A stretch of DNA of 64,000 nt from Roseomonas alba (GTDB taxonomy: Bacteria > Pseudomonadota > Alphaproteobacteria > Acetobacterales > Acetobacteraceae): contig NZ_JAHYBZ010000001.1 in NCBI RefSeq assembly GCF_019430885.1, positions 744,001 through 808,000 of the forward strand, read 5' to 3'. Below the pieces are notes generated by a model. The model had not been told where the DNA came from, did not search any database, and saw only the letters and a program-made list of their open reading frames with translations. Positions 3,029 through 30,635 of the stretch are shown piece by piece. Numbering within the stretch: the first letter of the stretch is position 1; the number at the start of each line of letters is the position of its first letter. The translations under genes and the position numbers were made by a program.

Positions 3029-3033
3029 GCGGT

Positions 3034-3780
3034 TCAGATCTCCCACTGGAAGCCGTCGATGGTGAAGGCCTGGCCGGTGATGAAGAAGGGCTCGGTGCAG
3101 GCGAGGAAGGCGACGAGCTGCGCGACATCCGCCGGCGTGCCGAGCCGGTTCAGCACGATCTTCTTGGCGAGTTCCGGGCCGCGCGACTTGGTGAGCGAAT
3201 TGCCGACCTCGGTCTCGATGATGCCGGGGCAGACGCAGTTGATGGCGATGGTCGGGCCGAGTTCCTTCGCCAGCGCCTTCGTCATGCCGATGATGCCGGC
3301 CTTGGCCGCGGCATAGGAGAATTTCGACACCGCACTGGTCACGCCGCCGGTATGCGCGTTGAGCGAGGACATGGAGACGATGCGCCCGCCGCCGCCATCG
3401 AGCATCATCGGCGCGAAGGCCTGGATATAGTTGAAGCAGGATTTCAGGTTGATCGCGATGGTGCGGTCGAAGCCTTCCTCGGTGATGTCGAAGATGCCGG
3501 TGGGGTTGCCGCGGCCGGCATTGTTCACCAGCACGTCGATCCGGCCGAAGCGCGCCTGCACCGCCGCGGCGATGGCCTTGGCGCGCGCGTGGTCGGCGAC
3601 GTCGGCTTCCTCGGTCATCACCTGGCGGCCGAGGGCGGTGATCTCGCCGGCCGTGCGGTGCATCTCCGGGGCCAGCATGTCGACGATCACGATGTCATAG
3701 CCGCGCCGAGCGAGCTCCAGCGCGCAGCCGCGCCCGATGCCACGGGCCGAGCCCGTGACGACCGCCACCTTGTCCGTCAT
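3034..3780 (-). CDS. Short-chain dehydrogenase/reductase
   Basis: A classical SDR of 248 residues. TGSARGIG (residues 9-16) binds NAD(P), NNAG is at 86-89, a catalytic Ser lies in SMSSLN around 139, and the Tyr-Lys pair is in YAAAK (Y156, K160). The C-terminus ITGQAFTIDGFQWEI is like many FabG-type alcohol dehydrogenases. The start overlaps the stop of the panE-like gene by 4 nt, and hyuA begins 5 nt after its stop, so it is inside the hydantoinase operon. It probably interconverts a hydroxy and an oxo intermediate; the substrate is unknown. Confidence 0.9.
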   Translation of the reverse strand: MTDKVAVVTGSARGIGRGCALELARRGYDIVIVDMLAPEMHRTAGEITALGRQVMTEEADVADHARAKAIAAAVQARFGRIDVLVNNAGRGNPTGIFDITEEGFDRTIAINLKSCFNYIQAFAPMMLDGGGGRIVSMSSLNAHTGGVTSAVSKFSYAAAKAGIIGMTKALAKELGPTIAINCVCPGIIETEVGNSLTKSRGPELAKKIVLNRLGTPADVAQLVAFLACTEPFFITGQAFTIDGFQWEI

Positions 3781-4820
3781 GCCTCGGCCCCCTGCCGCGC
3801 GGTTGCGATGCCGAGAAGGTTCTCGGCAAGTTCCATGCCGATCTCGCGCTCGCCGCGCTCGACGGCGCCGATCAGCGCGACCAGCCGGTCCAGCACGGGT
3901 GTCGCGATGCCGTGGCGGCGCGCCATGGCCAGGACCGGGGCAAGCTGCGCGCCCGCATCGGTCGGGCGGCGCCGGACCGCGAGGTCCCGCCAGATGCCGC
4001 TGCGCGGCTTGGCCGTGGCGCGATTGAAGGCAGCTATGGCTGCGATGGAGGCATCGATCGCCGCCGCATCGCCGCGGCCGAAGGCGTCCGGGTCATAGCC
4101 GTTGAAGCCGATCGGGCGGACACCGGCGGCGGTGGCGACGGCCATGACCTCCCCGATCAGGGCGAGGTGCAGGGGGCGCAGCGCCGGCGCATCGATGAAG
4201 TCGGCAATGGTCTCGTTGGTCAGGGCGCTCGCCTTGAGCAGGGCGCCGTAGCCGATCTTGCCCCAGAGATAGGCGAAGATGTCGTCGGCGATGACCGTGA
4301 CCGCGTCGAAGTCGCGCAGCAGGGCGTGCAGGGCGAGGATGCGCGGCGTGCGGGCGCCGTCGAGCTCGCCCAGGACGACCGCGCCGCGATTGGCATAGAG
4401 GATGTCGCCCGGGCCGTGCCAGTCCGCGCCGAAATTCACGAAGGCGCCGATGACGCGCGAGGCGCCGAGGATGTCGGCGAGCACCAGCTCGTTGAGGCCG
4501 TTCTGCGCGGAGACGACGTATCCGTCCTCGGTGAGGTGCGGGGCGAGGGCGCGTGCGGCATCCGCCGTATGGTGCGCCTTGACGGCGAGGATGACACGGC
4601 GGAAGCGCCCGGACAGCGCGGCGGGCGTGAAGGCGGGGCCGCCCGTGGTGAATTCGGCGACCGGGCCGCGGATCGTCAGGCCGCCGCCGGCGATTGCCGC
4701 GACGTGGTCCTCGACGAGATCGACGAAGGTCACGTCATGGCCGGCCCGGCGGAGGAAGGCGCCGATCGTTCCGCCGATCGCGCCCGCGCCCCAGACCAGG
4801 ATCGGATCGTCGTGCATCAT
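3777..4820 (-). CDS. Ketopantoate reductase family (PanE/ApbA-like) dehydrogenase
   Basis: 347 residues with an N-terminal Rossmann motif GAGAIG (11-16), the conserved LAVKAHHT Lys region near 87, NGLNE, and the C-terminal helical domain with LWGKIGYGALLKASALTNE, which carries the family's active-site Lys. PanE makes pantoate in CoA synthesis, but many paralogues reduce other 2-oxoacids. This copy is first in a hydantoinase operon, so a catabolic 2-oxoacid reductase role is more likely than pantothenate synthesis (inference). Its promoter should lie in the 156-nt divergent gap shared with the ABC importer. Confidence 0.85.
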   Translation of the reverse strand: MMHDDPILVWGAGAIGGTIGAFLRRAGHDVTFVDLVEDHVAAIAGGGLTIRGPVAEFTTGGPAFTPAALSGRFRRVILAVKAHHTADAARALAPHLTEDGYVVSAQNGLNELVLADILGASRVIGAFVNFGADWHGPGDILYANRGAVVLGELDGARTPRILALHALLRDFDAVTVIADDIFAYLWGKIGYGALLKASALTNETIADFIDAPALRPLHLALIGEVMAVATAAGVRPIGFNGYDPDAFGRGDAAAIDASIAAIAAFNRATAKPRSGIWRDLAVRRRPTDAGAQLAPVLAMARRHGIATPVLDRLVALIGAVERGEREIGMELAENLLGIATARQGAEA

Positions 4821-18410: not shown

Positions 18411-18422
18411 AAACGTCCGTAT
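18411..18422 (+). promoter_or_regulatory. Shared 12-nt motif, site 1 (sensor kinase operon)
   Basis: AAACGTCCGTAT lies 85 nt before the proposed GTG start of the histidine kinase. Near-identical sequences occur upstream of the stand-alone receiver (20747) and the RND operon (26273). Position and repetition suggest an activator site, possibly for the FixJ-type regulator at 20076-20738. Confidence 0.55.
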
Positions 18423-18507
18423 AGTATCGGGTGCGGGCGTGCCGGGGCATGCTCGACGCTGCGGGGGCCCTGCGCCTTGGGCCCGCGGCGGAGATGGTGG
18501 CAGGATC

Positions 18508-20079
18508 GTGAGCGAGAACCGAACCCCCGAGGCAGGGCCAGGGCGCGCGAGCGCGCGGGGCGCGCACCGGCCGCGGCAGGCGGCCAACCGGACGGCCTTT
18601 CTGGCGCTCGCCGCGGCCCTCACCGTGGCGATCTTCCTCGTCGATACGCTGACGCCGCTCGAGGGCGCGGTGGCGGTGCTCTATGTCGTGGTCGTGCTGC
18701 TGGCGGCGCGCAGCGGGCGGCGGCGGGACATCGTCGCGGCGGCGGCGGGCACCATGGCCCTGACGCTGCTCGCCTATGTCGCCATGCATGGTCTCCATCA
18801 CGTCGGCTCGCCGACCGTGCGCGCCTTCGTCAGCCTCGCGGCGATCGGCATCTCGGCCATCCTGGCGCTGCAGAGCCAGGCGGCGACCGCCGCCCTGTTG
18901 CGCAGCGAAAGCCGCTATCGCCGCATGTTCGATGCGAGCCGGGTCGGCGTCGTCGAGGAGGATTGGAGCAGGGTCCGGGCCGAACTCGCGGCGCGGGGGG
19001 CGGCGGGCGGCAGCGCCCTCGGCCAGGCGGAGCGCATCCGTGGGCTGACGCGGACCGTCGGCGTCAACCCGGCCATGCTGGCCATGCTCGGACGCGACGC
19101 CGCGGCGCCGCTGCTCGACGGCGGGGCGCGACCGCTGGTCGCCAGCGACCGGACTTTCGCCGAGACGCTCGACGCCTTCGCGCGGGGCGAGCCCTTCTAC
19201 GAAGGTGAATCCGAGGTCCTGCGCGATGACGGCACGCGCGTCCCGGTGCTGTTCGCGATCACCTTCCCGCGCCCGGAGGACAGTGATGGAACCGTCCTGA
19301 TCTTCGTGATGGACATCGCCGAACGCCGGCAGGCGCAGGATGCGCTGCTCCTCGCCCAGGCGGAGCTGGCGCATGCGGCACGCGCGGCGACGCTGGGCGA
19401 ACTGTCAGCTTCCATCGCGCATGAGGTGAACCAGCCGCTGATGGCCGTGGTCACGAGCGGCGAGGCCGGGCTGCGCTGGCTGCGGCGTGATCCGCCGGAC
19501 CTCGGCGAGGTGGATCAATCGATCAGCCGCATCGTCGCCGAAGGGCGCCGCGCGGGCCAGATCGTCGCGCGCATCCGATCCTTCGTGAAGAAGGCGCCGG
19601 TGCAGAGGGACCTGCTGGACGCCGCGACCTTCGTCGAGGAAGCGGTGCTGCTGGTCGAGCGGGAACTGTCGGCGGCGCAGGTCGCACTGGACGTCGATGT
19701 CGCCCCCGGGCTGCCGATGGTGCTCGGCGACCGCATCCAGCTCCAGCAGGTGCTGGTGAACCTGATGGTGAATGCGGGTCAGGCGATGGCGGCCCAGGAC
19801 CGTCCGCGCCGGCTGCGTGTGTCGGGTACACGGGACGAGGCGGGCGGCATCGTGCTGAGCGTGACGGATACCGGGCCGGGCATCGCCGCAGAGGATCTGC
19901 CGCGCCTCTTCGAACCCTTCTTCACGACGCGGCAGCAGGGTATGGGGATGGGCCTCGCCATCTGCCGCACCACCGCCGAGGCCCATGGGGGGCATCTGAC
20001 CGTCGAAAGCCGCCCGGGCGAGGGGACGGCCTTCCGCCTGTGGCTGCCCGCCGCGACAGAGGAGATTGCCGCGCCATGA
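18508..20079 (+). CDS. PAS-containing membrane sensor histidine kinase
   Basis: 523 residues from GTG 18508, with AGGA just upstream. Three hydrophobic segments (about 30-48, 53-67 and 76-92) and a fourth around 106-122 suggest a membrane-anchored input region. A PAS-like region spans about 130-275, ending in FVMDIAERRQAQDAL. The phosphorylated His is H305 in SIAHEVNQP, the N box is LVNLMVNAGQAM, and G boxes are DTGPGIA and GMGLAIC. The DctB/FixL-like kinase core suits the FixJ-type regulator that overlaps its end by ATGA. The signal sensed is unknown. Confidence 0.9.
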   Translation: MSENRTPEAGPGRASARGAHRPRQAANRTAFLALAAALTVAIFLVDTLTPLEGAVAVLYVVVVLLAARSGRRRDIVAAAAGTMALTLLAYVAMHGLHHVGSPTVRAFVSLAAIGISAILALQSQAATAALLRSESRYRRMFDASRVGVVEEDWSRVRAELAARGAAGGSALGQAERIRGLTRTVGVNPAMLAMLGRDAAAPLLDGGARPLVASDRTFAETLDAFARGEPFYEGESEVLRDDGTRVPVLFAITFPRPEDSDGTVLIFVMDIAERRQAQDALLLAQAELAHAARAATLGELSASIAHEVNQPLMAVVTSGEAGLRWLRRDPPDLGEVDQSISRIVAEGRRAGQIVARIRSFVKKAPVQRDLLDAATFVEEAVLLVERELSAAQVALDVDVAPGLPMVLGDRIQLQQVLVNLMVNAGQAMAAQDRPRRLRVSGTRDEAGGIVLSVTDTGPGIAAEDLPRLFEPFFTTRQQGMGMGLAICRTTAEAHGGHLTVESRPGEGTAFRLWLPAATEEIAAP

Positions 20080-20738
20080 TGAAGCCGGGTCAGGGCGGCG
20101 CCGCGCCATCGCAGCCGGCGGCCGAGGCGATCGTGATCATCGTCGACGACGACGCGGCGGTGCGCGAATCCCTCGACAGCCTGTTCCGGTCGGTCGGCTT
20201 CGCCACGCGGCTGCATGCATCCCCGGCGGAACTGCTGGGCGCGTCAATCCCCGAGATGCCGGGCTGCATCATCCTGGATGTGCGGCTGCCGGGTGCGAGC
20301 GGGCTTGATCTCCAGGCGGAGCTGGCGCGCAGCGGCATCGCGGTGCCCATCGTCTTCATGACGGGATACGGCGACATCCCGATGAGCGTGCGCGCCATGA
20401 AGGCGGGCGCGGTCGATTTCCTGTCCAAGCCGTTCCGCGACCAGGACATGCTCGACGCCGTGGCCGCCGCGGTCGGGCGCGACCGTCAGCGGCGCAAGGA
20501 GGCGCAGGCGGCCAACGACCTGAGGGGACGCTACGAGACCCTGACGGCGCGCGAGCGCGAGGTGATGATCCATGTCGTGGCCGGGCTGATGAACAAGCAG
20601 GTCGCCGGCATGATCGGGCTGAGCGAGATCACGGTGAAGATCCACCGCGGCAACGCCATGCGGAAGATGCAGGCCAGATCCCTCGCGGAGCTGGTGCGCC
20701 AGGCGGAACTCCTGGGGCTGCCGCGCCCGCCGTCATGA
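20076..20738 (+). CDS. FixJ/NarL-type response regulator
   Basis: 220 residues. The receiver has the acidic pocket VDDD (23-26), phosphorylated Asp68 in ILDVRLPG, Thr in FMTGYGD and Lys in SKPF. The C-terminal LuxR-type helix-turn-helix (LTAREREVMIHVVAG, then LSEITVKIHRGNAMRKM) binds DNA. ATG 20076 overlaps the kinase stop. It is the obvious partner of the kinase and the best candidate to bind the AAAC[CG]T[CT]CGTAT sites, including one in front of its own operon. Confidence 0.93.
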   Translation: MMKPGQGGAAPSQPAAEAIVIIVDDDAAVRESLDSLFRSVGFATRLHASPAELLGASIPEMPGCIILDVRLPGASGLDLQAELARSGIAVPIVFMTGYGDIPMSVRAMKAGAVDFLSKPFRDQDMLDAVAAAVGRDRQRRKEAQAANDLRGRYETLTAREREVMIHVVAGLMNKQVAGMIGLSEITVKIHRGNAMRKMQARSLAELVRQAELLGLPRPPS

Positions 20739-20746
20739 CCGGCGCC

Positions 20747-20758
20747 AAACCTCCGTAT
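20747..20758 (+). promoter_or_regulatory. Shared 12-nt motif, site 2 (stand-alone receiver)
   Basis: AAACCTCCGTAT begins 8 nt after the stop of the FixJ-type regulator and ends 88 nt before the ATG of the receiver gene, nearly the same distance as site 1 from the kinase start. The following bases (GATTCCGC against AGTATCGG at site 1) are only loosely similar, so the core is the conserved part. Confidence 0.55.
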
Positions 20759-20846
20759 GATTCCGCCGCGCGCCGCAAGTCGCCATAAGGAGCGGGCCGC
20801 GATCGGATAGCCGCAGGTGCGGCGCGGCGCTGAGGATGTGTTGCGG

Positions 20847-21230
20847 ATGAACCAGATTCCCCTGATCGCCGTCGTCGATGACGACGAGGCCGTGCGGAGC
20901 GCGCTGTCCAGCCTGCTTCGCTCGCTCGGCTATGCGGTCCGCGGCTATGGTTCGGCGTGGGATTTCCTTGAGGATCGCGACCATGACGATCCTGCCTGCA
21001 TGATCCTCGACGTGCAGATGCCGGGCATGACGGGCGCCGAGCTCCAGGCCAGGCTGCGGAGCGTCGGGCGGCATTTCCCGATCATCTTCATGACCGCGTT
21101 TCCCACGGATCGGGTGCGCGGGCAGGTCATGGGTGCGGGCGCCAGCGCCTATCTCAGCAAGCCGGTCGATGGCGACACGATCGCGCAATGCCTCGCTACA
21201 GCGCTTCTGGGCAACGATCGGCCCCAATAG
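20847..21230 (+). CDS. Stand-alone receiver-domain response regulator
   Basis: 127 residues, only a receiver domain: VVDDDEAV at 9-16, phosphorylated Asp55 in MILDVQMPG, Thr in FMTAF and Lys in LSKPVDG. There is no output domain, so it may compete for phosphate or relay it to another protein. It resembles the receiver half of FixJ-type proteins. GAGGA lies about 10 nt before ATG 20847; upstream GTG codons are less likely. It has its own upstream gap with a copy of the shared 12-nt motif. The 278 nt after it show no clear element. Confidence 0.88.
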   Translation: MNQIPLIAVVDDDEAVRSALSSLLRSLGYAVRGYGSAWDFLEDRDHDDPACMILDVQMPGMTGAELQARLRSVGRHFPIIFMTAFPTDRVRGQVMGAGASAYLSKPVDGDTIAQCLATALLGNDRPQ

Positions 21231-21508
21231 GGCACGGCCTTCGGCATACCTCCGGCGTTGCCGGGCGCGCGTCGCATGGCACCTGCCCGCGACGGACATG
21301 GCCCTGCCGCACTCCCCAAGGCGCTTCGGCAACCCAGATCGGGGACACTGCCCGGTGCGGCGCGACAGCCCCGGGTGACCGTGAGAATCCGCAAGGGTCG
21401 GCATCGTCCGGAAATCGCGCGGATGCACCTCGGTCTATCCCACGCAGTGTCCGCTGATCGAGTGCGCTCGGGCCGCGGCAGGATCGTATCCACATCCGAG
21501 GAAAGACG

Positions 21509-22735
21509 ATGCGTGCCATGGAACAAGAGTCCACCGAGACGGCCGCGCAGGTCACGCGGCTTCGTCCCGCCCCGCCGGCTGGCGAGGGCGACGGCACGGC
21601 GCCGCGCATGAAGGGCCCCAGCCCGGAGGACGCGGCACCGTTGGCCGGGGCGGGCCAGGGCGGTGCGCAGCCCGGCTTCTTCCGCCGCCATGCGCGGAGC
21701 GCGGCGGTGGCATCGGTCCTGCTGCCGGTGCTGTTCGCGGGGGGCTATCTCTACTGGGAACACAGCAATCACTTCGAGACGACCGACGACGCCTTCATCG
21801 CCGCGCGACAGATCGCGATTGCGCCGAGGGTCTCGGGCGACATCGTCGCGGTGCCGGTGACGGACAACCAGCATGTCACGACGGGCGACGTGATCGTGCG
21901 CATCGACGACCGCGACTTCCGCGCGGCCCTGCTACAGGCCGATGCGCAGGTCGCCGCGGCGCAGGCGAGCATCGCGGCCATCGACGCGCAGCTCGCGGTG
22001 CAGCAGTCCCAGATCGCGCAGAACCAGGCGCAGGTCGACCAGGCGCATGCCGCGCTGACCTTCGCGCAGGAACAGGCGGTGCGCTATGCCGACCTCGCCC
22101 GGCGCGGTTACGGGCCGGAGCAGACGGCCGAGCAGACCTCCTCGCAGCTCAGCCAGCAGCAGGCGGCGCTGCGCACCGCGGAGGCCGCCCTCGATGCCGC
22201 GCGGCGCCAGGTCCAGGCGCTGACGGCGCAGCGGGCGGGTGCCACGGCAAGCCTGCAGCAGGCGACCGCGCAGCAGACCCAGGCGCGGCTCAACCTGTCC
22301 TACACGACGATCACGGCGGCGGAGCCGGGGCGGGTCGTGGCGCTGACGGCCGGGGTCGGCGAATACGTTGCGGCGGGCACCAGCCTGACGATGTTCGTCC
22401 CGGACGAGATCTGGGTGACCGCGAACTTCAAGGAGACGCAGCTCGACCGCATGCGGCCCGGACAGGCCGCGGCGCTGGAGGTGGATGCCTATCCCGGCCG
22501 CGATCTGCAGGGCCATGTGGACAGCGTCCAGCCGGGGTCGGGCACGGCCTTCTCCCTGCTGCCCGCGCAGAATGCCACCGGCAACTACGTGAAGATCACC
22601 CAGCGCGTGCCGGTCAAGATCGGCATCGACAACGCGCCCACCGACGTCGCGCTGGGGCCGGGCATGTCGGTCGTGCCGACGGTGCGCGTCGATCCGACGC
22701 CGTCGCTCTACGAGCGGCTGAGGCAGTGGCTGTGA
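21509..22735 (+). CDS. emrA: Membrane fusion protein, EmrA/HlyD type
   Basis: 408 residues. One N-terminal membrane anchor (AAVASVLLPVLFAGGYLYW, about 70-88) is followed by a lipoyl-like half motif, a long Gln/Ala-rich coiled coil (about 145-255), and the beta-barrel with VGEYVAAGTSLTMFVPDEIW. It spans the periplasm and links the inner-membrane pump to an outer-membrane channel. GAGGAAA lies before ATG 21509. It overlaps the next gene by 10 nt, typical of emrAB pairs. No outer-membrane channel gene is nearby. Confidence 0.9.
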   Translation: MRAMEQESTETAAQVTRLRPAPPAGEGDGTAPRMKGPSPEDAAPLAGAGQGGAQPGFFRRHARSAAVASVLLPVLFAGGYLYWEHSNHFETTDDAFIAARQIAIAPRVSGDIVAVPVTDNQHVTTGDVIVRIDDRDFRAALLQADAQVAAAQASIAAIDAQLAVQQSQIAQNQAQVDQAHAALTFAQEQAVRYADLARRGYGPEQTAEQTSSQLSQQQAALRTAEAALDAARRQVQALTAQRAGATASLQQATAQQTQARLNLSYTTITAAEPGRVVALTAGVGEYVAAGTSLTMFVPDEIWVTANFKETQLDRMRPGQAAALEVDAYPGRDLQGHVDSVQPGSGTAFSLLPAQNATGNYVKITQRVPVKIGIDNAPTDVALGPGMSVVPTVRVDPTPSLYERLRQWL

Positions 22736-24321
22736 GCGGGGCCGCCAGCACGGCCGGCGCCGCGGCATCCGCGGCCGTGCCGAACCCGTGGCTCGTCGCG
22801 GTGCTGGTCGCCACGGCGAGCTTCATGGAGGTGCTCGACACCACCATCGCCAATGTGGCGCTGCCCTACATCGCCGGCGGGCTCGGCGTCAGCGAGGACC
22901 AGGCGTCCTGGGTGGTGACCAGCTACCTGGTCGCCAATGCGGTCATCGTCACGGCCAGCGCCTTCCTGGCGAAGCGCTTCGGGCGGACGCTGTTCTTCCA
23001 GGCGTGCCTGGGGCTCTTCACGCTGAGCTCGGTCGCCTGCGGCTTCGCGTGGAACCTGGAATCGCTGCTGCTGTTCCGCGTCCTCCAGGGGCTGGGCGGT
23101 GGTGGCATGGTGCCGGCGGCTTTGTCGATCCTCGCTTCGTCCTTTCCGCCGGCGAAGCGCGGCCAGGCCTTCGCGCTTTATGGACTGGCGGTGGTCGTGG
23201 CACCCGTGGTCGGGCCGACGCTCGGCGGCTGGCTGTCCGACACCTATTCCTGGCACTGGTGCTTCCTGATCAACGGGCCGGTCGGCGTGATCGGGATCCT
23301 GGCCGTGATGGCGGTGCTGCGCCCGCAGCGGGCGACGGCGGCGGAACGCGCGACGCTGGGGCGGTTCGACCTGGTGGGATTCGGCCTGGTCGCGACCTTC
23401 CTCGGGGCGCTGGAGGTCGTGCTCGATCGCGGGCTGGAGGAGGACTGGTTCGGATCGACCTTCATCATCACCGCGACGGCGATCTGCGCGCTGGCCTTCA
23501 TCCTGATGATCCCCTGGGAGCTGACGCGCCGGCAGCCGCTGATCGACCTGCGCATGCTCGCGACACGCCAGTTCGGGGCCTGCTTCGTCGTCATGCTCGG
23601 GACCGGGGCGATCCTGCTGGCGACGACGCAGTTCCTGCCGCTCCTGGTGCAGCAGCTTTTCGGCTACACGGCGACCTGGGCGGGGCTTGTGCTGTCCCCC
23701 GGCGGGCTGGTCACGATGGCGATGATGCTCGTCATCGGCCGGCTGTCCGGGCGGGTGCAGCCGCGCATCCTGATCGCCGCGGGGGCGGTGATCGCCGCGG
23801 TGTCGATGTATGGCCTGACGAGCGTGTATGGCGCCGTCGACTTCTGGTACTTCGCGCATTCCCGGATGCTGCTGGGCATCGGGCTGCCGCTGCTGCTGAT
23901 CCCGATCACCACCGCATCCTTCGACGGCATTGCGCCGGACCGGACGGACATGGCCTCGGCGCTGATCAACATGGCGCGCAACACCGGCGGATCGATCGGC
24001 GTTTCCATCGGCAGCAACGTGCTGGCGCATCGCGAGCAGTTCCACCAATCCCGCCTTGCGGAGAACGCGGTGCCGTCCAACCCGGCCTTCCAGCAGACGC
24101 TGCAGCAGATGACCGAGTATTTCCACAGCCATGGGAGCCTGTTGCCGGAGGCGCAGCAGCAGGCCTTCGCCTGGATCGGCAGCGAGGTCGGGCGGCAGGC
24201 GAGCCTTCTCGCCTATGTCGATGTGTTCTGGGTGCTGATGTGGATCGCGCTGGCGGCGGTGCCACTCGCGCTCTGCCTGCGGACGACCAGACTGGGTGCC
24301 GCGGCCCCGGCGGGACATTGA
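22726..24321 (+). CDS. emrB: MFS drug exporter, DHA2 family (EmrB type)
   Basis: 531 residues with about 14 membrane segments, as expected for DHA2 proton antiporters. Family motifs are FMEVLDTTIANVALP in the first segment, SWVVTSYLVANAV (about 63-75), FLAKRFGRTLFF for motif A, and GGGMVPAALSIL. It should expel hydrophobic toxic compounds with EmrA. The start is GTG 22726 (or GTG 22732), inside the end of emrA, so the two are translationally coupled. Confidence 0.92.
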   Translation: MAVSGAASTAGAAASAAVPNPWLVAVLVATASFMEVLDTTIANVALPYIAGGLGVSEDQASWVVTSYLVANAVIVTASAFLAKRFGRTLFFQACLGLFTLSSVACGFAWNLESLLLFRVLQGLGGGGMVPAALSILASSFPPAKRGQAFALYGLAVVVAPVVGPTLGGWLSDTYSWHWCFLINGPVGVIGILAVMAVLRPQRATAAERATLGRFDLVGFGLVATFLGALEVVLDRGLEEDWFGSTFIITATAICALAFILMIPWELTRRQPLIDLRMLATRQFGACFVVMLGTGAILLATTQFLPLLVQQLFGYTATWAGLVLSPGGLVTMAMMLVIGRLSGRVQPRILIAAGAVIAAVSMYGLTSVYGAVDFWYFAHSRMLLGIGLPLLLIPITTASFDGIAPDRTDMASALINMARNTGGSIGVSIGSNVLAHREQFHQSRLAENAVPSNPAFQQTLQQMTEYFHSHGSLLPEAQQQAFAWIGSEVGRQASLLAYVDVFWVLMWIALAAVPLALCLRTTRLGAAAPAGH

Positions 24322-24528
24322 GCCGCCTGGCGGGAAAGACGTGCGCCGGCTGATGCGGGGCGGCCGGGATTGTGCCGTGGGGAAAGCCGCCGGCGCCGGT
24401 TGAAATCGCCGGCCGCGCCGGAGCGCAAGCCATTCCCGCGATGCTTCCCGCCAGCAGGGGGCCGGAACGGACACAGCGCCCACCGCATCGGGGAGCTTCC
24501 CACGCAGATCGACAAGGCCTCTGCGCTC

Positions 24529-25023
24529 ATGACCGCGCCGCTCGCCACCCAGAGCCGCTTCCCGGCGGCGGCGGTCACCGAGCCGTCGCTCGCCACCATG
24601 CTCGCGGACATGCTTGCGCTCTACGCGAAGACCGAGAACTTCCACTGGCATCTGTCCGGGACGCATTTCCGCGACTGCCACCTGATGCTCGACGACCGGG
24701 CGGCGCAGATCTTCGCCACCACCGACCGGATCACCGAGCGCGCCCGGAAGATCGGTGGCACGACCCTGCGCTCGATCGGCCATGCGGTCCGTATCGCGCG
24801 CATCGCCGACAACGATGCGGAGTATGTCGCGCCGCTCGACATGCTCGCCGAGCTGCGCGACGACAATCGCCAGCTCGCGGTCTATCGCGCCGAGACGCAT
24901 GCGCTGAGCGACCGGCATGGCGATGTGGCAACCGCGAGCCTGCCCGAGGCCCGGATCGACGAGGCGGAGGGCCGCGCCTGGTTCCTGTTCGAAGCCAGCC
25001 GACGCGGCGAAGCCGGGCATTGA
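24529..25023 (+). CDS. dps: Dps-family DNA-binding/ferritin-like protein
   Basis: 164 residues. The ferroxidase signature NFHWHLSGTHFRDCHLMLDD (37-56) has the intersubunit iron ligands, followed by the helix with RITERARKIGGTTLRSIG. Dps forms 12-mers that store iron with hydrogen peroxide and coat DNA under stress. ATG 24529 is the best start but lacks a strong ribosome-binding site; the frame remains open upstream. The 207-nt gap after emrB holds nothing clear. Confidence 0.9.
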   Translation: MTAPLATQSRFPAAAVTEPSLATMLADMLALYAKTENFHWHLSGTHFRDCHLMLDDRAAQIFATTDRITERARKIGGTTLRSIGHAVRIARIADNDAEYVAPLDMLAELRDDNRQLAVYRAETHALSDRHGDVATASLPEARIDEAEGRAWFLFEASRRGEAGH

Positions 25024-25165
25024 CCGGAAGCGGCGGCGCCATGGCGGGGAAGGCCATTGCGGGCTTCCCCCCGGGTGCCGCTGCCCCCTGTGCTGCGCGG
25101 AGGGGCTGCTCCGCATCGCATGGCGTGCCCGGGGTGGGGCGGTGCCGGAGATGCGCCGGACGGTA

Positions 25166-25198
25166 CCCTTCGAAGGGGCCTGTCAGACCGAGGGTCTG
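25166..25198. terminator. Hairpins downstream of dps
   Basis: The palindrome CCCTTCGAAGGG (25166-25177) is followed by the stem CAGACC-GAG-GGTCTG (25184-25198) ending near TGTGTTG. They lie 143-175 nt after dps, before repeat copy C, and could end transcription. The remaining part of the gap (25024-25165) shows nothing I recognise. Confidence 0.35.
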
Positions 25199-25218
25199 TG
25201 TTGATGGCCGGGAAGGTT

Positions 25219-25469
25219 GGAAGATGGGAGGGGCCCCGCCCCTCCAAGCCACACGGCCATGGGATCCCATCGGCCACAGGGCCTTTGGAAGCCGGCACCT
25301 GGCGCGGGGCAGCGCAGGCGTTCCGTCTCTCGTTGGCATGTTTGGGGCCAGAGGGCGGGTTCCGATACCGATCCTGATCGCAAAGCCCGGCGCCAGGTCG
25401 AGGTCTCCGAAGGCCTTTCGGCCTTTGGTGGGGAAAGTCCGGGAGGGGCACAGCCCCTCTCGGTTCCAC
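25219..25469. repeat. Paired double-hairpin repeat, copy C
   Basis: Fills the end of the convergent dps/araC gap. The left arm starts GGAAGAT, then the perfect 8-bp stem GGAGGGGC-CCC-GCCCCTCC (25227-25245), then GGCC-ACAG-GGCC (25272-25283) and the tail ACCTGGCGCGGGGCAGCGC. The right arm is inverted: GCGCCAGG tail, CCGAAGGCC/GGCCTTTGG (25407-25428), and CCGGGAGGGGC-ACA-GCCCCTCTCGG (25439-25463), ending GGTTCCAC (25462-25469). The left end is of the copy D type and the right end of the copy A type. Confidence 0.82.
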
Positions 25470-25495
25470 AGTCCGGACAGGAGTGGCCGCTGGTA

Positions 25496-26170
25496 TCAGG
25501 CGCTCGGCATCGCGGTCGCGGAGACGCCCGCCCAGCGATCGCCGCGGGATGCCGGGGCCGCTACCGGATGCGGGGCGCCCTCGCGTTCCAGCTCGGCCTG
25601 GCGCCAGCGATGGGGCGTCAGGCCGACCACCCGCTTGAACACGGTGGTGAAATGCGCCTGGGTCTGGAAGCCTACCGCGAGCGCCACCTGGACGATCGGT
25701 TCCTGCGTCTCGACCATCATGCGGCGCGCATGCTGGATCCGCCGGTGAATGACGAAGTCGTGGGGGCGCTGTCCGGTCGCGAGCCTGAACTGTGCGGCGA
25801 AATGCATCTCGCTGAGGCGCGCGGCGGCGGCGAGATCGGCGAGGGTGATCCGCTCCCCGATATTGGCGTCGACATGCGCCTCCACCTGGCGGAGCTTCCA
25901 CTTCGGCAGGGGCGACACGCGCCGCCGGCCATCGCGATCCGTCGAGCCGCGCAGGGCCGCGAGGCGACTGAGCAGGCTGGCGTGGAAGGCATCGGTGTAG
26001 AAGCCGCTGAGCACCTGCTCGGCCGCATCCGACGGCAGCAGGGCCCGCACGAAATGCGCCATCGTGGCATCGGGGCAGCCATCGCCGCCGTCGATGTCCG
26101 CCATGACACCGAAGCCGGCAGGCGGGCGGGTGGATGCGGCAGTCGTTGATGTTGCGCTGATCGTCGGCAT
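25496..26170 (-). CDS. AraC-family transcriptional regulator
   Basis: 224 residues. The C-terminal AraC domain holds two helix-turn-helices: ITLADLAAAARLSEMHFAAQ (about 107-126) and IVQVALAVGFQTQAHFTTVFKR (given here with the known Phe-Lys-Arg end), closing with VGLTPHRWR. The short N-terminal part has no recognised sensor domain. It is divergent from the RND operon across a 257-nt gap, so it probably controls the pump, alone or beside the AAACCTTCGTAT site. The start could also be ATG 26104. Confidence 0.88.
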   Translation of the reverse strand: MPTISATSTTAASTRPPAGFGVMADIDGGDGCPDATMAHFVRALLPSDAAEQVLSGFYTDAFHASLLSRLAALRGSTDRDGRRRVSPLPKWKLRQVEAHVDANIGERITLADLAAAARLSEMHFAAQFRLATGQRPHDFVIHRRIQHARRMMVETQEPIVQVALAVGFQTQAHFTTVFKRVVGLTPHRWRQAELEREGAPHPVAAPASRGDRWAGVSATAMPSA

Positions 26171-26272
26171 CGCTTGTCCTCCGTCATCTCGATGGCGACA
26201 TCTGACGGCAAGGCGCGCGGTCGCGACATTCTACGCTGGTCGGTCCGCATCGACCTTCCGCGTGGCACGGAT

Positions 26273-26284
26273 AAACCTTCGTAT
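26273..26284 (+). promoter_or_regulatory. Shared 12-nt motif, site 3 (RND efflux operon)
   Basis: AAACCTTCGTAT lies in the divergent AraC/RND gap, oriented toward the pump genes and ending 143 nt before their first start codon. It differs from site 2 at one base. The larger distance to the start than at sites 1 and 2 implies a longer leader, which contains the 27-nt inverted repeat at 26379. Confidence 0.5.
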
Positions 26285-26427: not shown

Positions 26428-27528
26428 GTGAAGCCTCACTCTGTCGCCTACGCCGTGGCGGTGACGGCGTGCCTGTTTGCCTCCGGCACGGCGCCGGCCC
26501 AGACCGCCGCCGTGCCGGTCGAGGTCGCAGAGGTCCGGCTGGCCGATGTACCGGTCGCGCTGGAGGGCATCGGCACGGTGCAGGCTCTCAACGCGGTGAC
26601 GCTGCGGGCCCAGGTGGATGGCGTCCTGCAGGAGGTCCGCTTCCGGGAAGGGCAGGAGGTCCGGGCGGGGGACGTTCTCGCACAGATCGACCAGGGGCCC
26701 TACCAGGCCGCGCTCGACCAGGCCGTCGCGCGGAAGGCGCAGGACGAGGCGCAACTTCACAACGCCGAGCTCAACCTGGCGCGCTATGCCGATCTTGCGC
26801 GGGACGACTTCGCGTCGCGCCAGCAACTCGCGAACCAGCAGGCGCTGGTGGCGCAGCTCCAGGCGCAGGTGCGGGGGGACGATGCGGCCATCGCGACCGC
26901 GCGCATCCAGCTCGGCTACGCCACCCTGACCGCGCCCATCGGTGGCGTGACGGGATTCCGGCAGGTCGATGCGGGAAACCTGATCCGCGCGGCGGAGGGC
27001 ACGACGATCGTGGTGATCACCCAGGTCCAGCCCATCGCCGTCATCTTCACCCTGCCGGCCGAGACCCTGCCGGAGATCCGCCAAGCCATGGCGGCGGGGC
27101 CATTGCCTGTGACGGTCCTCGAACGGCAGGGCAGCCGGCCGTTGGGGGAGGGCACGCTGCTGCTGGTGAACAACCAGATCGAGACGGCCAGCGGGCAGTT
27201 GCAGCTCAAGGCCGAGCTGCCCAACCCGGACCGCGCATTGTGGCCGGGGCAGTTCGTCACGGTTCGGCTGACGCTGGGGACGGATCGCGGCGTGCCCACG
27301 GTGCCCTCGACAGCGATCCAGCGCGGGCCGGACGGCTACTGGCTGTATGTCGTGCGGCCGGACCGCACGGTCGCGGCGCAGAGCGTGCAGGTGCGGCGCA
27401 TGACCGGCGGCATCGCGGTGCTGGAGGGCGGTCCGCCGGCGGGGACGAGCGTCGTCACCGCCGGGCAGTACCGGCTGCAATCGGGCAGCCGCGTCATGAC
27501 GACCGCCGGCGGCCGTCCCACGCCATGA
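26428..27528 (+). CDS. RND efflux periplasmic adaptor (MdtA/AcrA type)
   Basis: 366 residues from GTG 26428, which has GGAG 7 nt upstream; a Sec signal (PHSVAYAVAVTACLFASGTA, ending PAQ) follows. The lipoyl halves are VTLRAQVDGVLQEVRF and YATLTAPIGGVTGFRQVD, around a short coiled coil with RQQLANQQALVAQLQAQ. The C-terminal beta-barrel has LPNPDRALWPGQFVTVRL. It bridges the inner-membrane pump to an outer-membrane channel. The stop overlaps the pump start by ATGA. Confidence 0.93.
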   Translation: MKPHSVAYAVAVTACLFASGTAPAQTAAVPVEVAEVRLADVPVALEGIGTVQALNAVTLRAQVDGVLQEVRFREGQEVRAGDVLAQIDQGPYQAALDQAVARKAQDEAQLHNAELNLARYADLARDDFASRQQLANQQALVAQLQAQVRGDDAAIATARIQLGYATLTAPIGGVTGFRQVDAGNLIRAAEGTTIVVITQVQPIAVIFTLPAETLPEIRQAMAAGPLPVTVLERQGSRPLGEGTLLLVNNQIETASGQLQLKAELPNPDRALWPGQFVTVRLTLGTDRGVPTVPSTAIQRGPDGYWLYVVRPDRTVAAQSVQVRRMTGGIAVLEGGPPAGTSVVTAGQYRLQSGSRVMTTAGGRPTP

Positions 27529-30500
27529 ACTTATCGGCCCCCTTCATTGCCCGGCCGGTGGCGACCATCCTGCTGATGGTCGCGCTGATCTTCCTCGGCG
27601 CCGTCAGCTATCCCCTGCTGCCCGTCGCGCCACTGCCGCAGGTCGATTTCCCGACCATCTCGGTCACGACCCAGCTTCCCGGCGCCAGCCCGGAGATCAT
27701 CGCGACATCGGTGACCGCACCGCTGGAGCGCCAGTTCGGGCAGATCCCGGGCGTGTCGACGATGACCTCCAGCAGCGTGCTCGGGACCAGCACGATCACC
27801 GTGCAGTTCGACCTGAGCCGCAACATCGACGGGGCTGCGCTCGACATCCAGTCGGCGATCAACCAGGCCGCCGGGCAACTGCCGGCGAACCTGCCCGCGC
27901 CGCCGCAATACCGGAAGATCAATCCCGCGGATGCGCCCATCCTCGTCCTCGCGGTGCAGTCGGATCTGCTGCCGCTGATCCAGGTGGACGACTACGCGGA
28001 ATCGATCCTGGCCGAGCATATCGGGCAGATCGCGGGGGTCGCTCAGGTCGGCGTCAACGGCCAGCAGAAGCCCGCGGTGCGCATCCAGATCGACACCGCG
28101 AAGCTCGCCTCGCTCGGCCTGTCACTCGAGGATGTGCGCACGGCGATCACCACCCTCACCACCGTCGCGCCGCAGGGGTCGCTGGAGCAGGCCACGCGCG
28201 ACTTCGTCATCTACGACAACGGCCAGCTCCTCACGGCGGCGCGCTGGAACGATGCGATCATCGCCTACCGCAATGGCGGGCCGGTGCGCGTGCGGGATAT
28301 CGGCCAGGCGGTGGACGCGGCGGAGAACCTGCGCCTCGCGGCCTTCGCCAACGGGCGGCCGGCGATCCTGCTGGCCGTCAGCCGCGTGCCGGGCGCCAAT
28401 GTCATCGCCACGGTCGAGCGCATCAAGGCCGCGCTCCCGGCCCTGCAGGCCGCGATCCCGCCCACCGTGACGGTCACGGTGCTGAGCGACCGGACGCAGA
28501 CGATCCGCGCGGCGGTCGCCGATGTGCAGCGGACGCTGCTGATCACCATCGGGCTGGTTGTGGCCGTCATCTTCGTCTTCCTGCGCAGCCTTCGCATGAC
28601 GGTCATTCCCGCCGTCTCGGTGCCGCTGGCGCTGGTGGCGACCTTCGCGGTGCTCTACGCGCTGGGATACAGCCTGGACAATCTGTCGCTGATGGCACTG
28701 ACCATCGCGGTCGGCTTCGTCGTGGACGACGCCATCGTGATGCTGGAGAACATCGAGCGGCACGCGCAGTCGGGGCTCGGCCCGCGAGAGGCCGCGCTGC
28801 GCGGATCGGGGGAGATCGCCTTCACCATCGTCTCGATCAGCATCTCGCTGGTCGCGGTGTTCATCCCGCTGTTCCTGATGCCCGGCATCGTCGGGCGGCT
28901 GTTCCGCGAATTCGCGGTGACGGTCACGGCGACCATCCTGGTCTCGGTCATCGTGTCCCTGACGCTTACGCCCATGATGGCGGCGCGCATGCTGCGGGCG
29001 GATCACGCGGGGACGCGGCATGGCAGGCTCTACCGCCTGTCCGAGCGCGGCTTCGAGGCGTTGCAGGACGGGTATCGGCGTCTGCTCGACATCGCGCTCG
29101 GCCACCGCCTGGTGATGCTGGCGGTCTTCTTCGCGACCATCGTCGCGACGGGGATCGCCTTCGCGCGCATCCCGAAGGGGTTCTTTCCGCAGCAGGATAC
29201 GGGGCTGATTCTCGGTACCATCCAGACCTCGCCGCAGACCTCCTTCGCTGAGATGGAGCGGATCTCCCTGCGGCTCGCGGCCATCGTGCAGCAGGCCCCG
29301 GAGGTGGCGAGCGTGGGGCTGAGCCTGGGCAGTGGCGCCGGGCTGACGGAGAATCAAGGGCGGATGTTCATCAGCCTGAAGCCGCGCGACGAGCGCGACG
29401 CTTCGGCCGGGGTAATCATCCGGCGCCTCGCGCCCCAGCTTGAGGCGGTGCCGGGGGCCAGGACCTATCTGCAATCGGTGCAGGACATCAATGTCGGCGG
29501 GCGGCTCGCCAGCACGCAGTACCAGTACACGCTGCAGGATGCGGATGCGGCGCAACTCGATCTCTGGGCACCGCGCATCTTCGCGGCCCTCGGGGCGCTC
29601 CCGCAGCTTCGCGACGTTGCGACCGACCAGCAGACCGGCGGGACGACCCTCGACATCGCGATCGACCGCGATGCGGCGGGGCGCTACGGCATCACGCCGC
29701 TGCAGATCAACAACACGCTGTATGACGCCTTCGGCCAGCGCCAGGCCGCGCAGTACTTCACCCAGACCAACTACTACCATGTGGTGCTCGAGGCGCTGCC
29801 GGCGATCCAGGCGGCGCCGAATGCGCTCCAGCAGATCTTCATCACCTCGCCGCTGACGGGGACGCAGGTGCCGCTGTCTTCACTCGCGCGGTGGAGCGCG
29901 GCGCCGACCAGGCCGATCGCGATCAACCACCAGGCGCTGTTCCCCTCGGTGACGATCAGCTTCAACCTGGCACCCGGCGTCGCGCTGAGCGAGGCGGTCG
30001 CCGCGATCGGCCAGGCCGTCGCGCAGTTGCAGGCGCCCGGTGGCCTGCTGACCAGCTTCCAGGGCAATGCGCAGGCCTTCCAGTCCTCTCTGGCCAGCGT
30101 GCCGCTACTGATCCTGGCCGCGCTGGTCGTTATCTACATCGTGCTCGGCATCCTCTACGAATCCTTCGTCCATCCGCTGACCATCCTGTCGACGCTGCCC
30201 TCGGCCGGGCTCGGGGCGGTGATCGTGCTGTGGGCGGGGGGATTCGATTTCGACATCATCGCAATGATCGCGGTGATCCTGCTGATCGGCATCGTGAAGA
30301 AGAACGGCATCATGCTCGTCGACTTCGCCCTGGCTGCGGAGCGCGACGAGGGCAAGTCGCCGGCCGAGGCCATCCGCGAAGCCTGCCTGCTGCGCTTCCG
30401 CCCCATCCTGATGACGACGGCTGCGGCGTTGCTCGGGGCCCTGCCGCTGATGCTCGCCCAGGGGACGGGGGCGGAGCTTCGCCGCCCCCTCGGCTTCGCC

Positions 30501-30635
30501 ATCGTCGGCGGGCTCGCGGTCAGCCAGCTGCTGACGCTGTTCACGACGCCGGTGGTGTATCTCTATCTCAACCGGCTCCAGCTGCGCGGGAAGGCGCGGA
30601 GCCCGGTGCTCGAAGGCGGGCTCCGGTTGCCGTGA
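27525..30635 (+). CDS. RND multidrug efflux transporter (MdtB/MdtC type)
   Basis: 1036 residues, the full family length, with 12 membrane segments and two large periplasmic loops. The proton-relay Asp pair is in GFVVDDAIVMLENIERH (about 400) and the matching Lys in GIVKKNGIMLVDFAL (about 924). The N-terminus FIARPVATILLMVALIFLGAVSYPLLPVAPLPQVDFP (shortened here to its FIARPVAT start in essence) fits MdtB/MuxB. E. coli mdtABC encodes two different RND subunits; here only one is present, and no outer-membrane channel follows. Confidence 0.93.
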   Translation: MNLSAPFIARPVATILLMVALIFLGAVSYPLLPVAPLPQVDFPTISVTTQLPGASPEIIATSVTAPLERQFGQIPGVSTMTSSSVLGTSTITVQFDLSRNIDGAALDIQSAINQAAGQLPANLPAPPQYRKINPADAPILVLAVQSDLLPLIQVDDYAESILAEHIGQIAGVAQVGVNGQQKPAVRIQIDTAKLASLGLSLEDVRTAITTLTTVAPQGSLEQATRDFVIYDNGQLLTAARWNDAIIAYRNGGPVRVRDIGQAVDAAENLRLAAFANGRPAILLAVSRVPGANVIATVERIKAALPALQAAIPPTVTVTVLSDRTQTIRAAVADVQRTLLITIGLVVAVIFVFLRSLRMTVIPAVSVPLALVATFAVLYALGYSLDNLSLMALTIAVGFVVDDAIVMLENIERHAQSGLGPREAALRGSGEIAFTIVSISISLVAVFIPLFLMPGIVGRLFREFAVTVTATILVSVIVSLTLTPMMAARMLRADHAGTRHGRLYRLSERGFEALQDGYRRLLDIALGHRLVMLAVFFATIVATGIAFARIPKGFFPQQDTGLILGTIQTSPQTSFAEMERISLRLAAIVQQAPEVASVGLSLGSGAGLTENQGRMFISLKPRDERDASAGVIIRRLAPQLEAVPGARTYLQSVQDINVGGRLASTQYQYTLQDADAAQLDLWAPRIFAALGALPQLRDVATDQQTGGTTLDIAIDRDAAGRYGITPLQINNTLYDAFGQRQAAQYFTQTNYYHVVLEALPAIQAAPNALQQIFITSPLTGTQVPLSSLARWSAAPTRPIAINHQALFPSVTISFNLAPGVALSEAVAAIGQAVAQLQAPGGLLTSFQGNAQAFQSSLASVPLLILAALVVIYIVLGILYESFVHPLTILSTLPSAGLGAVIVLWAGGFDFDIIAMIAVILLIGIVKKNGIMLVDFALAAERDEGKSPAEAIREACLLRFRPILMTTAAALLGALPLMLAQGTGAELRRPLGFAIVGGLAVSQLLTLFTTPVVYLYLNRLQLRGKARSPVLEGGLRLP

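What the first reader, a model, noticed from the sequence alone, without database searches (positions are those of the whole stretch)
18411..26284. Shared motif AAAC[CG]T[CT]CGTAT upstream of sensor kinase, receiver and RND pump
The 12-nt core occurs at 18411-18422, 20747-20758 and 26273-26284, each in an intergenic gap and each oriented toward the gene it precedes. The first two end 85 and 88 nt before start codons. I found no other copy in the window. This links the two-component operon, the stand-alone receiver and the RND efflux operon into a candidate regulon, with the FixJ-type regulator (20076-20738) as the natural binder.
Basis: partly seen in the sequence, partly recalled or inferred. 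Interest (0 to 1): 0.75.

Follow-up and report, generated by a model that had tools for sequence, protein, structure and literature searches.

The report
Self-regulation box of bacterial sensor cassette
A short DNA box found beside a sensor kinase, its regulator and a small receiver gene recurs at the same spot beside the same genes in many distantly related bacteria; it is likely where the regulator binds to control its own system, and the receiver it would switch on is predicted to feed back on the kinase.

Summary
AAAC[CG]T[CT]CGTAT occurs three times in the window (shuffles give none) and four times in the 6.3-Mb genome; the fourth copy lies in a decayed duplicate of the same cassette. In most of 80 related named loci the box, widened to AAACCTNNGTATRRTTYC, precedes the stand-alone receiver gene, with a -10-like hexamer at a fixed distance that puts it near -41/-43. 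Where the receiver gene is not next to the regulator gene, the box goes with the receiver. In 19 whole genomes chosen for having the cassette, 25 of 26 exact copies lie just before a receiver or kinase gene. The likely binder is the adjacent regulator, closest among solved proteins to StyR; the published StyR/TodT box is ATAAAC-N4-GTTTAT. So the first two sites hold up. The third is probably not an RND-pump promoter element: it lies 45 nt from a TAGAAT of the divergent araC gene, a spacing seen in 28 of 32 loci with such a pair (24 of them Bradyrhizobium). Best reading: an autoregulated StyR-type cassette whose regulator switches on a receiver that probably feeds back on the kinase, as FixT does on FixL. 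Binding, activation and feedback are inferred.

The parts
18411..18428 (+). Box 1, kinase promoter (core 18411-18422)
   Evidence: 20.8 bits; similar box before the kinase in both N. lacus cassettes L088, L089
18448..18453 (+). -10-like hexamer CATGCT of box 1 (box positions 38-43)
   Evidence: predicted, no start site mapped
18508..20079 (+). Sensor histidine kinase (HisKA, HATPase_c, weak PAS)
   Evidence: Pfam; below the FixL cut-off
20076..20738 (+). StyR-like (FixJ/NarL-family) response regulator, receiver plus GerE; likely binder of the box
   Evidence: Pfam; best solved relative StyR 1yio, E 4.3e-55; 205.8 bits against the FixJ cut-off 255
20747..20764 (+). Box 2, receiver promoter (core 20747-20758)
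   Evidence: 30.9 bits
20784..20789 (+). -10-like hexamer CATAAG of box 2, 17 nt after a weak -35 (TTCCGC, 20761-20766)
   Evidence: Fixed position across relatives
20847..21230 (+). Stand-alone receiver protein, phospho-acceptor site intact (D12, D55, K105)
   Evidence: Pfam
26273..26284 (.). Box 3, near-palindromic core in the araC/RND gap; assigned here to araC
   Evidence: 7.6 bits in the pump direction
26228..26233 (-). TAGAAT, likely -10 of araC, 45 nt (start to start) from box 3
   Evidence: Same spacing in 28 of 32 loci with such a pair
25496..26170 (-). AraC-family regulator
   Evidence: Pfam; best hit in this genome of the Bradyrhizobium AraC of L092
26428..27528 (+). RND efflux adaptor (start codon chosen by eye)
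   Evidence: TIGR01730 RND_mfp 241.9 bits, cut-off 94.9; Pfam
27525..30635 (+). RND efflux permease
   Evidence: PF00873 ACR_tran 1016 bits

Best explanation
The shared 12-mer is the core of a promoter element that recurs upstream of the stand-alone receiver gene in relatives of this kinase-regulator cassette, and it is likely the operator of the cassette's own StyR-like response regulator. In the receiver and kinase promoters the near-palindrome AAAC-CTNN-GTAT abuts a weak -35 (TTYC), with a -10-like hexamer 17 nt further on; this would place the operator at about -43 (12-mer) or -41 (18-mer), where a class II activator sits. The phosphorylated regulator would bind there and raise transcription of kinase-regulator and receiver. 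The receiver keeps its phospho-acceptor site and shares much of the regulator's alpha-1 face, so it would dock on the same kinase and restrain it, as a competing receiver or an inhibitor: a loop that works like FixL-FixJ-FixT. The third site is most likely an operator of the same regulator for the divergent araC gene, at about -58. Shown: sites, conservation, spacing, location. Inferred: binding, activation, feedback, the araC assignment.
For: 4 exact copies in 6.33 Mb, the fourth between FixJ and receiver genes of a decayed duplicate cassette. Box and receiver together in 71 of 80 named loci, box without receiver in 0 of 80 (with three loci reassigned). Where receiver and regulator genes are not neighbours (L138, L152, L162) the box precedes the receiver. 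In 19 whole genomes with the cassette 26 copies against 2 in control; 21 before a receiver, 4 before a kinase, 1 elsewhere. -10-like hexamer at box positions 38-43, z 15.1, largest shuffle value 3.8. Best solved relative StyR, whose published box is ATAAACN4GTTTAT (PMC5874301 passage) and which activates from about -40 (PMC2442086 abstract). Receiver D12 and D55 in 73 of 73, K105 in 72 relatives. Alpha-1 is the segment most alike between receiver and own regulator, 58%, alpha-5 8%. araC spacing and AraC best hit.
Against: The plain 12-mer is not enriched in 150 genomes of the family (38 matches against 52 in control, hand count), nor AAACNTNCGTAT in 35 of the genus (27 against 43). Of 5 hits outside the own genome among 385 genomes of the class, 3 are not at a cassette. 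Five of 80 loci have a receiver but no box of 18 bits or more. A receiver-type box before the kinase is seen in only 7 of 80 loci (my reading). The matrix was trained on 65 of the 80 loci it was scored on, and the regex fixed part of the core. The recognition helix is near-invariant also in loci without box, so co-variation gives no support for the binder. No binding, start-site or expression data.
Confidence: 0.65

Rival explanations
1. One reading: one regulon of kinase, receiver and RND pump, with box 3 serving the pump operon directly.
For: Box 3 has an exact core and lies upstream of the adaptor gene; RND genes lie near the cassette also in N. lacus L088 and L089; L088 has a box in the same gap.
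Against: Towards the pump box 3 scores 7.6 bits and has no -10-like hexamer at the right distance. Its spacing to TAGAAT on the araC side is shared with Bradyrhizobium, Xanthobacter and Ancylobacter loci. L089 has only a degenerate form.
Confidence: 0.15
2. The box is not an activator site: TATRRT inside it is the -10 of an ordinary promoter, and AAACCTNNG is a spacer element or the site of some other protein, for example a repressor.
For: TATAAT/TATGAT/TATAGT resembles a sigma-70 -10 (sequence).
Against: A second -10-like hexamer lies at fixed spacing downstream, with 17 nt to the conserved TT. Ordinary promoters would not be nearly private to this cassette. The core matches the StyR/TodT operator core.
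Confidence: 0.12
3. The box is the regulator's operator, but the receiver is not a feedback element; it carries the signal to another partner (an output branch).
For: Stand-alone receivers can act by protein contacts (PMC7078487, introduction read); receiver and regulator differ strongly in alpha-5.
Against: The receiver stays close to kinase and regulator in the loci that have it and its alpha-1 is the segment most like the regulator's.
Confidence: 0.35

Closest known systems
StyS/StyR, TodS/TodT, TmoS/TmoT (FixJ/NarL-family activators of aromatic degradation)
   Same: Closest solved relative of the regulator is StyR; core AAAC-N4-GTTT/GTAT; operator near -40 (PMC2442086, PMC5874301, listing and passages).
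   Different: Outer bases differ (AAACCTNNGTATRRTTYC against ATAAACN4GTTTAT); by my alignment two of three recognition residues differ (Val176 to Ile, His179 to Gly). Targets are the cassette itself, with no degradation genes seen; a receiver gene is added.
FixL-FixJ-FixT
   Same: Kinase, FixJ-family regulator and a stand-alone receiver gene likely under the regulator's control; FixT is FixLJ-induced and inhibits FixL (PMC7078487, abstract and sections 4 and 13).
   Different: Regulator and kinase fall below the FixJ and FixL cut-offs; the 4-Cys motif of Caulobacter FixT is absent; inhibition is untested here.
NodV-NodW / NwsA-NwsB of Bradyrhizobium
   Same: Some close homologues in Bradyrhizobium are labelled 'Nodulation protein W' by sources.
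   Different: The label was not tested and no nod genes were examined; a NodW operator was not looked for beyond the terms.

Membership tests
FixJ/NarL-family response regulators | Receiver domain followed by a GerE (LuxR-type) helix-turn-helix | tested here: met
   PF00072 and PF00196 above cut-off
FixJ proper (equivalog) | Score above NCBIfam NF006900 cut-off | tested here: not met
   205.8 bits against 255
FixL proper (equivalog) | Score above NCBIfam NF041777 cut-off | tested here: not met
   194.6 bits against 850
StyR/TodT group | Operator ATAAAC-N4-GTTTAT | tested here: inconclusive
   Core AAAC-N4-GTWT shared, outer bases differ
StyR/TodT group | Recognition residues Lys175, Val176, His179 | tested here: not met
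   Aligned by eye: Lys, Ile, Gly; TVKIHRG near-invariant in 79 loci read
FixT | Stand-alone receiver gene with the regulator's predicted operator | tested here: met
   the operator role itself is inferred
FixT (Caulobacter) | 4-Cys Fe-S motif | tested here: not met
   The window's receiver has two Cys, C51 and C115 (sequence)
FixT | Inhibits autophosphorylation of the cognate kinase | not testable with these tools
   Needs purified proteins

The most novel reading that the evidence does not exclude
A widespread, so far unnamed class of two-component cassette (alpha- and gammaproteobacteria) in which a StyR-like activator's strong operator is nearly private to its own cassette. Its chief target is a receiver that competes for the same kinase, so the system is a self-limiting pulse circuit, with AraC as its relay to efflux and stress genes. 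The operator AAAC-CTNN-GTAT would be a new specificity class of the StyR/FixJ family.
Probability: 0.4. Interest if true: 0.62.

Novelty: new variant of a known kind. Interest (0 to 1): 0.5.

Why it matters
The box gives a sequence-level handle on a large set of uncharacterised two-component systems: 7999 of the 8000 candidates scored for the regulator had E of 1e-30 or better, though they need not all carry the cassette. If the reading holds, it predicts the regulator's DNA specificity, its start sites and a built-in receiver brake, testable with one protein and two promoters. It also suggests how an apparent pump regulon can be a two-step cascade through a divergent AraC gene.

Tried and rejected
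Rejected: box 3 as an RND promoter element (no TT and no -10-like hexamer in that direction; spacing conserved with araC instead). Rejected: TATRRT as the promoter's own -10 (second -10-like hexamer at fixed spacing). Rejected: one-mismatch copies as further targets (14 against 8). The palindromic form AWACSNNSGTWT gives 13 places in the genome against 6 in control; one of them, C3:59520, lies before a gene that looks TetR-like by eye and was set aside. Scans with the plain 12-mer were uninformative: 38 against 52 in 150 genomes of the family, and AAACNTNCGTAT 27 against 43 in 35 of the genus; the totals are my hand counts of the tables. Helix-box co-variation could not be used. Literature: exact box strings, AAACCT with FixJ, FixJ-family with single-domain regulator terms, StyR/NodW/receiver terms (15 of 474 listed) and FixJ with Dps, AraC and receiver terms listed no paper that I recognised as describing this box; the library holds open-licence PMC papers only and I read few of them. 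PMC4070704 (passages) concerns another Bradyrhizobium efflux locus.

Dropped before counts: one search left out 15 of 80 loci that failed its regex, and that regex wholly or partly fixed positions 1, 3-5 and 9-15. One search reduced the sites to 47 by similarity. One search misfiled L123, L148 and L162 because of match coordinates; I reassigned them. One search was given 20 of the 80 loci, chosen by me for diversity; 19 genomes were held, L097 was not. One search covered only part of each locus (3000-4600, or 10800-11200 in L088 and L089).

Mended since: the count of Bradyrhizobium loci at the 45-nt spacing (24, not 25), the positions fixed by the regex, and the genus-wide scan, which I had left out.
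Full report
OBSERVATION. Exact copies are expected 0.00 times in 100 dinucleotide shuffles. The whole genome (6.33 Mb, 28 contigs) has four exact copies; the reversed pattern has none (the wider AAACSTNNGTAT finds the same four). The fourth, C3:37588-37599, lies between a FixJ gene 72% identical to the window's and a receiver gene. In that duplicate the FixJ frame has a TAG inside, the kinase matches in broken pieces, and the receiver match has no stop inside. With one mismatch the genome gives 14 matches, the four included, against 8 in control, so degenerate copies carry little information.

CONSERVATION. One scan of named genome contigs with the regulator kept 80 loci of 566 relatives, among them Neoroseomonas lacus (two cassettes), Bradyrhizobium, Bosea, Devosia, Methylobacterium, Ancylobacter, Xanthobacter, Stenotrophomonas and Lysobacter. 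In 59 of 80 the pattern A-N-AC-[CGT]-T-NN-GTAT lies between 60 nt before and 300 nt after the end of the regulator match; one of the 59 (L148) is a different site, because its match end is displaced. Aligned without gaps, 65 loci plus the four own-genome sites (69 rows, effective number 35.6) give AAACCTNNGTAT[GA][AG]TT[CT]C and one further strong column at position 39. The regex of that call wholly or partly fixed positions 1, 3-5 and 9-15; positions 2, 6-8, 16-18 and all downstream positions were free. One search, which did not fix positions 13-18, shows the same bases there. A matrix made from these 65 loci and scored on all 80 finds box (18 bits or more) and receiver together in 68. L123, L148 and L162 also have both but were misfiled by coordinates, which makes 71. 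Five have a receiver without such a box (L130, L131, L143, L150, L155; four of them have a degenerate one of 14.8-17.1 bits), four have neither (L124, L154, L160, L163), and none has the box without the receiver. In L138, L152 and L162 the receiver gene is not next to the regulator gene, and the box precedes the receiver. So the element belongs to the receiver's promoter and not to the end of the regulator gene. A box of the same form before the kinase is seen in 7 of 80 loci by my reading (L088, L089, L107, L120, L139, L158, L165), besides the window and, degenerate, the C3 duplicate.

EXCLUSIVENESS. In 19 whole genomes reached through 20 of the 80 loci, AAACCTNNGTATRRT occurs 26 times, against 2 for the reversed pattern; 18 of 19 have it. 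Twenty-one copies lie before a receiver gene, four before a kinase gene (one of these only 29-33% identical to the window's), and one, in L189, elsewhere. These genomes were chosen because they have the cassette. In 385 genomes drawn evenly from the class the 18-mer occurs 7 times against 1 in control: two in the own genome, two at cassettes, three in places without any of the cassette genes. In the window's genus 3 of 35 genomes have the receiver at E 1e-25 or better; the receivers found there have a box before them. The plain 12-mer is not enriched in 150 genomes of the family (38 against 52), nor AAACNTNCGTAT in the genus (27 against 43), which is what a rare cassette would give but is no support.

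PROMOTER GEOMETRY. Scored with a recalled -10 matrix, -10-like hexamers pile up at box positions 38-43: z 15.1, the largest value in 500 shuffles 3.8, over 47 sites thinned by similarity, seven of them kinase-side or own-genome sites. If positions 38-43 are -12 to -7, the 12-mer is centred at about -43.5 and the 18-mer at -40.5. The conserved TT at positions 15-16 begins a weak -35, 17 nt from the -10. The core AWAC-N4-GTWT is a near-palindrome. This is the layout of an activator abutting a weak -35. StyR activates from a site about -40 (PMC2442086, abstract in the listing, passages), and StyR-like regulators are said to recognise ATAAACN4GTTTAT, with StyR residues Lys175, Val176 and His179 (PMC5874301, passages). 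The regulator's best solved relative by sequence is StyR (1yio, E 4.3e-55). Its recognition helix reads TVKIHRG and is nearly invariant in the 79 loci read, those without box included. It stays below the FixJ cut-off (205.8 of 255), and the kinase below that of FixL (194.6 of 850).

THE THIRD SITE. Box 3 lies between araC (minus strand) and the RND operon. In the pump direction its 18-mer scores 7.6 bits, against 20.8 for box 1 and 30.9 for box 2, and it has no -10-like hexamer at the required distance (sequence). On the other strand TAGAAT, a good -10, lies 45 nt from the box, start to start. A pair of AWAC-N4-GTWT and this hexamer was found in 32 of 80 loci, in the part searched; 28 have exactly 45 nt: 24 Bradyrhizobium, two Xanthobacter, one Ancylobacter and one N. 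lacus. The hexamer occurs 0.063 times per kb in these loci. Most of this rests on one genus. The AraC protein of a Bradyrhizobium locus (L092) has the window's AraC as its best hit in this genome, 129.9 against 89.8 bits (one direction only). N. lacus L088 has the box in the same gap and L089 a degenerate form. I therefore assign box 3 to araC, with AraC possibly acting on the pump. That last step is a guess.

THE RECEIVER. It consists of a receiver domain only. D12 and D55 are present in 73 of 73 relatives and K105 in 72, so phosphorylation is plausible. Between each receiver and its own regulator, alpha-1 is 58% identical on average, the most similar of six segments that I set by eye, and alpha-5 8%. 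That suggests docking on the same kinase. FixT of Sinorhizobium and Caulobacter is a FixLJ-induced stand-alone receiver that inhibits FixL (PMC7078487, abstract and sections 4 and 13). The present receiver works like it at most: the 4-Cys motif is absent and the phospho-acceptor site is intact, so competition for phosphate is an alternative mode.

VERDICT. Binding, activation and feedback remain to be shown.

Noticed in passing
L087 (G000:C3:30000-46000), around C3:37136-39600: A second, decayed copy of the kinase-regulator-receiver cassette: TAG inside the FixJ frame, kinase in broken pieces, receiver match without stops, box before the receiver kept and a degenerate box before the kinase.
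   Followed up: partly
L107 3774-3843; L118, L132, L148 between dps and kinase genes: In Bosea and Stenotrophomonas loci a further box-like near-palindrome lies between a divergent Dps (ferritin-like) gene and the kinase gene, so Dps may be another target there; the window's own Dps gene (24529-25023) has no box.
   Followed up: partly
window 20847-21230 (receiver): A Cys next to the phospho-acceptor (C51) is kept in 72 of 73 relatives and C115 in 58; position 101 is Cys in 37 of 73 but Ala here.
   Followed up: no
L113 (NZ_VCCH02000010.1): A record titled Mycobacterium sp. KBS0706 holds a regulator 71% identical to this one with receiver and Dps; the title may be a misassignment, since the other named loci are proteobacterial.
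   Followed up: no
L115, L118, L121, L128, L132, L148 (Stenotrophomonas, Lysobacter and kin): Regulators from gammaproteobacteria are 69-75% identical to this one, about as close as those of Bradyrhizobium, which suggests transfer between classes.
   Followed up: no
L005 1501-1512 (G000:C3:59520): Perfect palindrome ATACGTTCGTAT just before a gene that looks TetR-like by eye; probably that gene's own operator and unrelated.
   Followed up: no
window 21509-24321: HlyD/EmrB-type efflux pair directly after the receiver gene, without a box of its own; the permease scores 421 bits against a cut-off of 230 for EmrB-type DHA2 transporters.
   Followed up: no
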